Shown here one piece after another: positions 28,168 to 30,931 of a stretch of DNA of 40,444 nt. A program made the translations under genes and the position numbers. Numbering within the stretch: the stretch's first letter is position 1; every line of letters starts with the position of its first letter. This DNA is from Fervidicoccus sp. (GTDB lineage: Archaea > Thermoproteota > Thermoprotei_A > Sulfolobales > Fervidicoccaceae), in NCBI GenBank assembly GCA_002899805.1, contig POCB01000098.1:1-40444 (forward strand), given 5' to 3'. The notes beneath the pieces were generated by a model. The model made no database searches. It saw only the letters and a list, made by a program, of their open reading frames with translations, and had not been told where the DNA came from.

Positions 28168-29199
28168 TTAGGCTGTTACTTCTTCAGATGCATGAAATCT
28201 GTAACCACAATATGGACAGAATTTAGAACCTGGAATGACTTTTCTGCCGCAATTAGGACAGAAATTAAAGGTTACTTCTTCTTTGTTCTTCTCCAGGAAA
28301 ACTTCTCTAGCTTTCATAGCATCTTGAGAGGTGAATTTTTCCATATATTCCTTCTTGAGGTCGTCTTTAACTAGATGCATATATACCTGTGTAACTTTTA
28401 TATCAGAGTGTCCCAAAATTCTTTGAAGAGCTGGTAAGCTGATACCCCTTCTTATTGCTACTGTCGCAAAAGTATGTCTGAGAACATGAGGTCTTATTTT
28501 CCTTTTATCCAGTCCAGCACGCTTCGCTAGGCTTTTTAGTCTCTTGTAGAGACCATTATACGAAAGTTCTACGAGCCTTCTCCCCTTCTCTTCTCCAAGG
28601 AGCGCTAACCTTCTTTTTACTGCTTCACTTGAGAATTCACCCAAGAAGACAGTCCTTTCCTTTCCGTATTTAGCATTCCTCACGACAATTTCTCCCTTAT
28701 CGATATCTACATCCTCCCCAGTTATAGATAAGAGCTCATTAGCCCTAACACCTGTTTCGAAAAGGAGCGATACTATTAGCAAATCCGTTAGGTCACGGCA
28801 TGCGGAAAAAAGCTTTTCAACTTCTTCTTCACTCATTGCAGATATCTCAGCAGAGGAGGGTCTTTTGACAACCGGTACAACTTCTTTTGGAAAACCTAGC
28901 CAATTGAGCCATTTTCTCACGAAAAGCGAATAATAGTGCATTGTCACTTGTATTTTCCTTTTCTTAGTAACATCCTTGCCCGCCGATTTGAGCTTTGAAT
29001 TTATCCAGGAAACGATAACAGATTGGTTTATATCCTTCACTGTAGAGGCTCCGGTTGAAGCTATAAAATCCTCGATTGCAGCTTTGTAGCTCAATATAGT
29101 TTTCTCACTGGATCCAGAAGCCCTGAGCAGATTAAGAAAGAACTCCATTGCCGTTCTTAGATCGCCCTGCTTAATATGCTCAGGAGGAGGGGTTAGCAA
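28168..29199 (-). CDS. Tyrosine recombinase, XerA-like, with C-terminal zinc ribbon
   Basis: 343 residues. Core-binding domain about 12-105, catalytic domain 115-290 with the full set: Arg152 (ETGVRANELL), Lys in the beta hairpin around 178-182, His238-Leu-Leu-Arg-His type motif (HVLRHTF, Arg241), His264 (LGHSDIKVT) and the nucleophile Tyr273 (VYMHL). The core is like chromosomal XerA of archaea, which resolves dimers at dif, but this protein adds about 50 residues with a Cys4 zinc ribbon, FCPNCG and FCPYCG (about 312-335). A helper role in DNA or protein contact is possible. It lies close to a tnpB relic and an orphan tRNA 3' half, so an element integrase is the alternative. No dif-like site was recognised. 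Confidence 0.82.
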   Translation of the reverse strand: MLTPPPEHIKQGDLRTAMEFFLNLLRASGSSEKTILSYKAAIEDFIASTGASTVKDINQSVIVSWINSKLKSAGKDVTKKRKIQVTMHYYSLFVRKWLNWLGFPKEVVPVVKRPSSAEISAMSEEEVEKLFSACRDLTDLLIVSLLFETGVRANELLSITGEDVDIDKGEIVVRNAKYGKERTVFLGEFSSEAVKRRLALLGEEKGRRLVELSYNGLYKRLKSLAKRAGLDKRKIRPHVLRHTFATVAIRRGISLPALQRILGHSDIKVTQVYMHLVKDDLKKEYMEKFTSQDAMKAREVFLEKNKEEVTFNFCPNCGRKVIPGSKFCPYCGYRFHASEEVTA

Positions 29200-29345: not shown

Positions 29346-29750
29346 TGGATAGACTTTACATGCTCAAAGAAGCATAACAGGAACATAGAAAAGAGCGATC
29401 GGAGGATAATATACAAGTTTATGAGCTATAAAGCCAATACTGTAATCCTCAATCGGTATAACTCCTCAAAGAAGTTCTCCAGATGTGGGATGAATCATGC
29501 CCAGAAAGGAGCACTATACGAGTGCAAATCTTGCGAGTTGAGGATTGACAGGCAACTCAATGCTGCCATAAACCTGTACCCTCAGATCGAGAGGCTTTCC
29601 CTAAGCCCGAGGCTCTTTGAAGAGCTGATGAGGGCTTGGAGCGGGTTCACCCAGACAGGGGAAGAGGATGATGAGAGCTCCGATGAACTCGAGAGGAGCC
29701 CTAGGCTAATGAACCCTCAGAGCTACGTATGTCTACCAATGACTACATAG
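29346..29750 (+). pseudogene. tnpB (IS200/IS605 OrfB) C-terminal relic
   Basis: Only the last quarter of a TnpB protein survives: the segment from about FMSYKANTV through NSSKKFSRCG, the zinc ribbon, and RIDRQLNAAINLY with the last RuvC aspartate, to a tail ending NPQSYVCLPMTT. The frame is open back to a TGA at 29343-29345, and the catalytic RuvC I and II motifs are missing. The first ribbon cysteine is Phe (FSRC instead of CSRC). The intact family is about 400 residues and acts as an RNA-guided nuclease. No tnpA is nearby. ATG 29421 would give 109 residues but is not a natural start. Clearly decayed. Confidence 0.85.
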
Positions 29751-29880: not shown

Positions 29881-29987
29881 GATAGAATGAGAAGCAAATC
29901 TTATTTGAATGCTCAAGCAAAGTGTAGAACAAGATGCAAAAAATTTAAAGGCAACTTGAGAATAAACCTTAGACAGGGGGTTGAGGA

Positions 29988-30060
29988 GGCTGGGGAGATC
30001 CCCCGCGACCGGGGTTCGAATCCCCGCCCGGCTACCATTCAATCGTTTTTCTCCCCAGCC
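29988..30060. repeat. 11-bp inverted repeat enclosing the tRNA 3' half
   Basis: GGCTGGGGAGA at 29988-29998 is perfectly complementary to TCTCCCCAGCC at 30050-30060. The left arm ends exactly where tRNA position 38 would begin (29999); the right arm lies in the last codons of the convergent XPF gene. The enclosed 51 bases are the tRNA half plus a short T-rich tail. Confidence 0.6.
29999..30037 (+). tRNA. tRNA 3' half, Gln-like, without a 5' half nearby
   Basis: From tRNA position 38 onward the structure is complete: anticodon-stem 3' strand CCCCC (30000-30004), five-base variable loop GCGAC, T arm CGGGG-TTCGAAT-CCCCG (30010-30026), acceptor strand CCCGGCT (30027-30033), discriminator A and an encoded CCA (30035-30037). 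The acceptor requires a 5' strand A/G-GCCGGG; an A1-U72 pair with variable loop GCGAC points to archaeal tRNA(Gln). No such 5' half lies within several hundred bases upstream, and none was found in the window. A TATA-like ATTTAAAG (29943-29950) about 25 bases before GACAGGGGG suggests independent transcription. GGGGG at 29976-29980 can pair with the CCCCC strand. It is either a trans-spliced half-gene or an integration scar. Confidence 0.65.
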
Positions 30061-30815
30061 CCTATCTCTTTCTCTTCATATTTCAAGTTGAAGAGTCTGA
30101 ACAGCCTTTTAGCTCTCGCCTCTCCTATCCCCTCAATACTTTTTAGTTGTTCTATGCTCAAAGAAAATACTTCTTTCAGACTTCCATAGGTTCTCAGAAG
30201 CTTTCTTGCCGTCTCATATCCACTCAATACAGCAAGGGAATTGAGGATCCTTTCACTATCTGAAGGCGCTTTCTTCTTTACATATGGCAAGAATTTTCCT
30301 CCCCCTACTTTTTTTCTGAGCGATTTGATTTTTGATACCATCCAAGATGCTGTCATTTCTGGGTCTTTTGTATAAATAATCGGAATCTTGAAAGTCAAAA
30401 CGATTTCATCTATTGCCCTAATTACAGCCAATTGAGGTATTTCTCTGTTTTCCATTGCATCCCAGAGATCACCCTCTATGAGAAAAACAACATCCATGTT
30501 ACTTTCTTTAGATATTTTAGAGAGTGATTCAGCTTGAGTCCAAAGCCTTGAATCTAATATGCTATTTATAAAGTCATCAACCCTCTTCCTTTCTATTAAA
30601 AAACCACGTGGTTCTGATCCTAGAGGAATGAAATAATCTCCTGCTTCTAGCTTGCTAACAGCCACTCTCATTCCTAACCTTTTGAGCTCTTTGATAACTC
30701 TTTCCGAGTGATATTCCTCATTTGAATCCACAACTACATCTGCAGGAAATAGCATGGAGTTGCCGCCTATCAATATAAAGTCACCCTTTTTCACATAATT
30801 CCAATAGCCAAGCAT
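30039..30815 (-). CDS. xpf: XPF/ERCC4-family structure-specific endonuclease (short crenarchaeal form)
   Basis: Nuclease of about 238-258 residues that cuts 3' flaps and branched DNA and in crenarchaea works with PCNA. Nuclease motifs: VVVDSNEE (metal Asp30), EAGDYF (Asp60), and the signature IERKRVDDF (75-83). C-terminal helix-hairpin-helix pair at about 195-245 with SIEGIGEARAKRLF. There is no helicase domain, as expected in crenarchaea. The start is uncertain: ATG 30815 gives 20 residues before the first strand; ATG 30755 begins MLFPADVVVD, nearer the family norm. A TATA-like TTTATAA sits at about 30826-30832, which would place transcription start near 30802 and so favour the shorter form. 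The stop codon is one base from the encoded CCA of the tRNA half on the opposite strand. Confidence 0.92.
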   Translation of the reverse strand: MLGYWNYVKKGDFILIGGNSMLFPADVVVDSNEEYHSERVIKELKRLGMRVAVSKLEAGDYFIPLGSEPRGFLIERKRVDDFINSILDSRLWTQAESLSKISKESNMDVVFLIEGDLWDAMENREIPQLAVIRAIDEIVLTFKIPIIYTKDPEMTASWMVSKIKSLRKKVGGGKFLPYVKKKAPSDSERILNSLAVLSGYETARKLLRTYGSLKEVFSLSIEQLKSIEGIGEARAKRLFRLFNLKYEEKEIGAGEKND

Positions 30816-30850
30816 GGATAATAATAATTATAAAACTTTCAAAACGAAAA

Positions 30851-30931
30851 CCCCGCCATTTATGGGGGATGAGCCGTGAAGAGCTCATCCTAAACGCTGA
30901 AAGGCCCGCTATTTAGAGCGGAGTAGCTAAC
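30851..30931 (+). repeat. Solitary IS605/TnpB right-end-like hairpin array, copy C
   Basis: Three consecutive hairpins: CCCC (30851-30854) with GGGG, GATGAGC (30868-30874) with GCTCATC (30883-30889), and CCGCT (30906-30910) with AGCGG (30917-30921), ending in GAGTAGCTAAC. The terminal hairpin and its tail resemble the ends of copies A and B (TAGCTCAC and TAGTTCAC). It fills the spacer between the xpf and DUF373 genes; no tnpB frame is attached. Confidence 0.5.

What the first reader, a model, noticed from the sequence alone, without database searches (positions are those of the whole stretch)
29976..30037. Orphan tRNA(Gln)-like 3' half with its own TATA box: split tRNA or integration scar
A complete tRNA 3' half from position 38 to CCA exists with no 5' half upstream. 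It is preceded by a 23-base purine-rich leader (29976-29998) and a TATA-like box at the right distance. Split tRNAs with GC-rich leaders are known in several crenarchaeal orders, and mobile element insertion has been proposed as their origin; a recombinase gene and a tnpB relic lie within 2 kb. Integration into a tRNA gene would leave the same 3' fragment, so both readings are open.
Basis: partly seen in the sequence, partly recalled or inferred. Interest (0 to 1): 0.78.

Follow-up and report, generated by a model that had tools for sequence, protein, structure and literature searches.

The report
Split glutamine tRNA gene, shared half
This hot-spring archaeon appears to build its glutamine tRNA by joining two separately encoded RNA pieces; the piece found here is the 3' half, and close relatives seem to use one such 3' half for both of their glutamine tRNAs, giving a rare step-by-step view of how tRNA genes break apart.

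Summary
Window 30000-30037 is the 3' half (position 38 to CCA) of tRNA-Gln, preceded by a G-rich leader and a TATA-like box. The 5' half lies on another contig of the same genome (G000:C169:13447-13484, anticodon UUG). Its trailer is a perfect 16-bp complement of the leader (0 of 20,000 shuffles reach this), and the junction forms a canonical bulge-helix-bulge at 37/38. Joined in silico, the halves read as tRNA-Gln(UUG). The 3' half and leader are 100% conserved in two sister species and 92% in another genus. Across genera leader and trailer change together, so this is a maintained gene, not an integration scar. The recombinase is a conserved XerA; the tnpB relic is private to this genome. In three relatives two 5' halves (UUG, CUG) face a single 3' half, which must serve both. 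Two other genera keep two 3' halves, so sharing looks derived. Gln(CUG) is also split in another family and in further genomes. tRNA-Lys(CUU) is split in this family too. Split tRNAs are a known kind; tRNA-Gln split at 37/38 in this order was not found in the literature searched. Expression is untested.

The parts
29941..29949 (+). TATA-like box (AAATTTAAA) of the 3' half, about 26-35 bases before the leader
   Evidence: Sequence. A/T-rich TATA-like stretches at similar distance precede most 3' halves in relatives. Function inferred.
29976..29999 (+). Leader of the 3' half (removed on splicing)
   Evidence: Conserved 100% in G001 and G002; pairs with the trailer of the 5' half.
29978..29993 (+). 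Leader stretch (GGGTTGAGGAGGCTGG) perfectly complementary to the trailer of the 5' half at G000:C169:13486-13501 (helix h')
   Evidence: 16 contiguous Watson-Crick pairs; 0 of 20,000 shuffles reach 16.
29994..29997 (+). GGAG, the 4-bp central helix of the bulge-helix-bulge, pairs with C32-U35 of the 5' half
   Evidence: Inferred from the canonical hBHBh' geometry; the G004 version (AGAG) also pairs (sequences).
29998..30000 (+). 3' bulge AT|C with the predicted cleavage between 29999 and 30000
   Evidence: Inferred from BHB geometry; the joined 76-nt product is called tRNA-Gln.
30000..30037 (+). tRNA-Gln 3' half, positions 38-76, CCA encoded
30050..30060 (+). TCTCCCCAGCC, 11-base complement of leader 29988-29998; role unknown
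   Evidence: p about 0.001 in G000; a different, covarying 11-mer in G004; interrupted in G002; weak or absent in other genera.
30039..30815 (-). XPF/Hef-type ERCC4-HhH nuclease gene, convergent neighbour that marks this locus in relatives
28168..29199 (-). XerA-type tyrosine recombinase gene, found at the same place in G001, G002 and G006; not a mobile-element integrase
   Evidence: NF040815, 209 bits, just under its 220 cut-off.
29421..29750 (+). TnpB C-terminal relic, private to this genome
   Evidence: PF07282; no matching insertion in the XerA to 3'-half interval of G001 or G002.

Best explanation
A split (trans-spliced) tRNA-Gln gene. The 3' half is transcribed from its own promoter as a short RNA. 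Its leader pairs with the trailer of a 5' half encoded elsewhere (G000:C169) and forms a bulge-helix-bulge at 37/38. The tRNA-splicing endonuclease (two subunit genes present) cuts both strands, and a ligase joins the halves to mature tRNA-Gln(UUG). In the clade of this genus and its sister genus the same 3' half serves both the UUG and the CUG 5' halves. Shown here: both halves, complementarity, covariation, lack of an intact copy, sharing by gene count in relatives. Inferred: transcription, cleavage, ligation and use in translation. The CUG 5' half of this genome was not found (79% complete assembly).
For: 5' half found by an independent pattern. Perfect 16-bp leader-trailer duplex. Joined product called tRNA-Gln(ttg) with a full cloverleaf, 3' half alone not called. 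Leader and exon conserved at the same place in relatives. Leader and trailer covary: strong duplexes for cognate pairs in all genera where both were found, weaker for most cross-genus pairs. Two 5' halves but one 3' half in G001, G002 and G004. Tally of G002 tRNAs lists no cis tRNA-Gln. Two PF01974 endonuclease genes in the genome. Sister families have cis tRNA-Gln, many with an intron at the same site.
Against: No transcript data. The assembly is 79% complete in 312 contigs, so an intact tRNA-Gln could be missing from it, although none is seen in the 99%-complete relatives. The helix next to the bulge is imperfect for the two G001 trailers and the G002 CUG trailer.
Confidence: 0.96

Rival explanations
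1. Integration scar: an element recombined into a tRNA-Gln gene and left a copy of its 3' part (att site).
For: A tyrosine recombinase and a tnpB relic lie within 2 kb.
Against: No intact tRNA with this 3' part in the genome. Leader conserved across species and locus conserved beside XPF. Recombinase is XerA-like and found at the same place in other genomes. tnpB relic private to this genome. A matching 5' half with complementary trailer exists.
Confidence: 0.01
2. Dead tRNA fragment (pseudogene) with no function.
For: No expression evidence in hand; the 3' half alone is not recognised as a tRNA.
Against: 100% conservation of 63-65 bases in two other species and compensating leader-trailer changes in other genera. 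It is the only tRNA-Gln 3' half in the genome.
Confidence: 0.02
3. Permuted tRNA or one half of a long-intron cis gene, with the 5' half nearby on the same strand.
For: Adjacent arrangements occur in this order (adjacent Gln(CUG) parts in G044; adjacent Lys(CUU) halves in G002).
Against: No 5' half near the 3' half in the window; the matching 5' half lies on another contig beside other genes.
Confidence: 0.01

Closest known systems
Nanoarchaeum equitans split tRNAs, including Gln(UUG) and the Glu pair that shares one 3' half (PMC3218864 Table 1; PMC4033280)
   Same: Trans-spliced tRNA-Gln; one 3' half serving two isoacceptors (there Glu, here Gln).
   Different: N. equitans Gln is joined at 32/33, this one at 37/38. 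Different phylum, no reduced parasite genome, and here relatives show the unshared state.
Desulfurococcales split tRNA-Asp(GUC) (Aeropyrum, Thermosphaera) and Lys(CUU) (Staphylothermus) (PMC3218864)
   Same: Same broad group, hBHBh' junction, G/C-rich leader; Asp joined at 37/38. The Lys(CUU) split seen here is at the same 30/31 site.
   Different: Different amino acid; the halves are unlinked and the gene is conserved across a whole family; 3' half shared by two isoacceptors.
Caldivirga maquilingensis split and tri-split tRNAs (PMC4033280)
   Same: Interchangeable halves giving synonymous tRNAs.
   Different: Two pieces only; no tri-split; not the same tRNAs.

Membership tests
Archaeal split (trans-spliced) tRNA | 5' and 3' halves encoded at separate loci | tested here: met
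   different contigs; in the single-contig G004 at about 102, 963 and 1009 kb.
Archaeal split (trans-spliced) tRNA | Complementary leader and trailer that bring the halves together | tested here: met
   16-bp perfect duplex; cognate duplexes in relatives.
Archaeal split (trans-spliced) tRNA | Bulge-helix-bulge at the junction | tested here: met
   3-nt bulges (GG|A and AT|C) and 4-bp helix CUUU/GGAG by inspection; cofold of the pairs agrees in outline, the 4-bp helix being only partly predicted.
Archaeal split (trans-spliced) tRNA | Joined halves give a functional-looking tRNA | tested here: met
   ARAGORN: tRNA-Gln(ttg).
Archaeal split (trans-spliced) tRNA | No intact copy of the tRNA | tested here: met
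   limited in G000 by 79% completeness.
Archaeal split (trans-spliced) tRNA | Own promoter for each half | tested here: inconclusive
   TATA-like boxes upstream of both halves; no transcription data.
Archaeal split (trans-spliced) tRNA | Two-subunit (alpha2beta2) splicing endonuclease | tested here: met
   Two PF01974 genes in G000, G002, G004, G005, G006; one found in G001. Assembly into a heterotetramer is inferred.
Archaeal split (trans-spliced) tRNA | Half-transcripts and spliced product in cells | not testable with these tools
   Needs RNA.
Integrase att scar | Intact tRNA elsewhere with the same 3' end | tested here: not met
Integrase att scar | Locus linked to a mobile element and variable among relatives | tested here: not met
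Permuted tRNA | 5' half just downstream on the same strand | tested here: not met

The most novel reading that the evidence does not exclude
The order holds a readable series of tRNA splitting: cis-intron tRNA-Gln, adjacent halves with an internal promoter, dispersed halves with private partners, and finally loss of one 3' half so that a single 3' half makes both Gln isoacceptors. In the sharing clade the 3'-half leader may also pair with its own 3' trailer, so that it becomes free to find a 5' half only after 3' trimming.
Probability: 0.35. Interest if true: 0.78.

Novelty: new member of a known kind. Interest (0 to 1): 0.62.

Why it matters
Whether split tRNAs are relics of early life or late breakages is debated (PMC3218864). 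Here the split gene, its unshared form and its cis-intron relatives lie within one order, and leader and trailer covary. The direction of change can therefore be read, and the move from two private 3' halves to one shared half can be tested. It also explains why standard gene callers would report these genomes as lacking tRNA-Gln.

Tried and rejected
Integration scar, pseudogene, permuted and long-intron readings were tested and rejected. The inverted match between leader and downstream sequence was considered as a hairpin or terminator. Folding z-scores are unremarkable, no terminator is called there, and the match is confined mainly to the sharing clade with an interrupted version in G002, so no role is claimed. 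A protein-based scan of genome contigs with the XPF gene found nothing. The CUG 5' half of G000 and a partner for the XPF-adjacent 3' half of G006 were not found.

Full report
Check of the observation. ARAGORN finds no tRNA in the window, and no second copy of the 3' half exists in the 1.46-Mb, 312-contig, 79%-complete genome.

The partner. A pattern for a 5' half beginning GCCGGGTR with a D arm gave one hit in the genome, G000:C169:13448. It reads AGCCGGGTAGTCTAGCGGCCAAGGATGCGGGGCTTTGG and then ACCAGCCTCCTCAACCC. The trailer is a perfect 16-bp complement of leader 29978-29993; 20,000 shuffles reach at most 14. The junction is a standard hBHBh': bulge G36 G37|A, helix C32-U35 with GGAG (29994-29997), bulge A T|C38, then the long helix. 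This geometry is my reading; the cofold shows the outer and inner helices and predicts the central one only in part. The joined 76-mer is called tRNA-Gln(ttg) with all arms paired; the 3' half alone is not called.

Conservation. Leader and exon are identical in two other species of the genus (G001, G002) and 92% identical in G004, another genus of the family. In this genus, G005 and G006 a 3' half sits beside the XPF-type nuclease gene; in G004 it is 7 kb away. Leaders and trailers differ strongly between genera, yet each cognate pair forms 11-16 contiguous pairs, while most cross-genus pairs form 4-9. Exceptions are within-genus pairs and some C-rich/G-rich cross pairs such as the G002 UUG trailer. 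This is compensatory change.

Sharing. G001, G002 and G004 each have two 5' halves, with CTG and TTG anticodons, and one 3' half. In G002 a listing of the detected tRNAs contains no cis tRNA-Gln. G005 has two 5' and two 3' halves, and duplex lengths and cofold energies pair each 5' half with its own 3' half (CUG with the XPF-adjacent one, UUG with the one next to a tRNA-Met). G006 also has two 3' halves. A five-protein tree joins this genus with G004 against the other three genera at 100/100. With two cis tRNA-Gln genes in sister families, the simplest history is two separate splits, then loss of the UUG-specific 3' half and retargeting of the UUG trailer. The reverse, a shared half later duplicated, is not excluded. 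G000 itself shows only the UUG 5' half; its assembly yields 12 tRNAs over the cut-off against about 41 in G002, so absence there means little.

Why not a scar. No intact tRNA has this 3' end. The recombinase at 28168-29199 is closest to the archaeal XerA model (slightly under its cut-off) and stands beside the same locus in G001, G002 and G006. The tnpB relic (29421-29750) is absent from the corresponding interval in G001 and G002, so it most likely came later.

Machinery. Two tRNA_int_endo (PF01974) genes are present in this genome and in G002, G004, G005 and G006, as in the two-subunit endonuclease of Crenarchaeota that PMC3218864 links with split tRNAs. The ligase was not searched for; RtcB is assumed from general knowledge.

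Wider pattern. Among the 59 genomes sampled, Gln(CUG) 5' halves without a cis 3' half also occur in all six sampled genomes of family f5 and in G013, each with an 11-16-bp match to its own leader; in G044 the two parts are 169 bases apart and might still be a long cis intron. tRNA-Lys(CUU) is split at 30/31 in this family: 5' halves in G000, G001, G002, G004 and G006, 3' halves found in G001, G002 and G004, adjacent in G002 and about 88 kb apart in G004, with covarying 11-14-bp duplexes.

Literature. N. equitans Gln(UUG) is split at 32/33; Glu shares a 3' half there; Asp and Lys are the splits reported in Desulfurococcales (PMC3218864, read; PMC4033280). No held paper joins Fervidicoccus with split tRNA, and no report of split tRNA-Gln at 37/38 in this order was found. 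Subscription papers and tRNA databases could not be searched. The family is unnamed in these tools. G004 (single contig, 1,319,206 bases) has, from memory, the size of Fervidicoccus fontis, but this was not verified.

Verdict. A real split tRNA gene of a known kind, in a lineage and for a tRNA where it seems unreported, with an unusually clear evolutionary series. Expression and splicing remain to be shown.

Noticed in passing
G000:C154:9162 (L279), L290, L295/L302, L282/L300, L298, L299: tRNA-Lys(CUU) is also split (30/31) in this family: 5' half in G000 with trailer GCCCGATACCCC; adjacent halves with an internal TATA-like box in G002, far apart in G004, covarying leader and trailer.
   Followed up: partly
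G021, G031, G055, G048, G040, G011 (f5), G013, G044: L080-L085, L105, L066, L060, L063, L064, L075, L078, L309, L310: tRNA-Gln(CUG) also split in family f5 and G013; adjacent parts 169 bases apart in G044.
   Followed up: partly
G000:C169:5057-5120, C121:1248-1297, C5:4894-4952 (L009, L010, L011): Three shortened tRNA genes (one Pro(UGG)-like, one Gly-like) lacking the anticodon arm, with short repeats at some deletion ends; full-length counterparts of the Pro and Gly types in G002. Assembly artefact or real deletions, unknown.
   Followed up: partly
window 29988-29998 and 30050-30060: Leader and downstream sequence of the 3' half are 11-base complements in G000, G001 and, with a different sequence, G004; interrupted in G002, weak or absent elsewhere.
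   Followed up: partly
G006:C33:110412 (L120): XPF-adjacent tRNA-Gln 3' half with an unusual leader whose 5' partner was not found.
   Followed up: no
window 30840-30925: Short inverted repeats (cccgccatttatgggggatgagccgtgaagagctcatcc...) that look like the end of an IS200/IS605-type element, next to the XPF gene.
   Followed up: no
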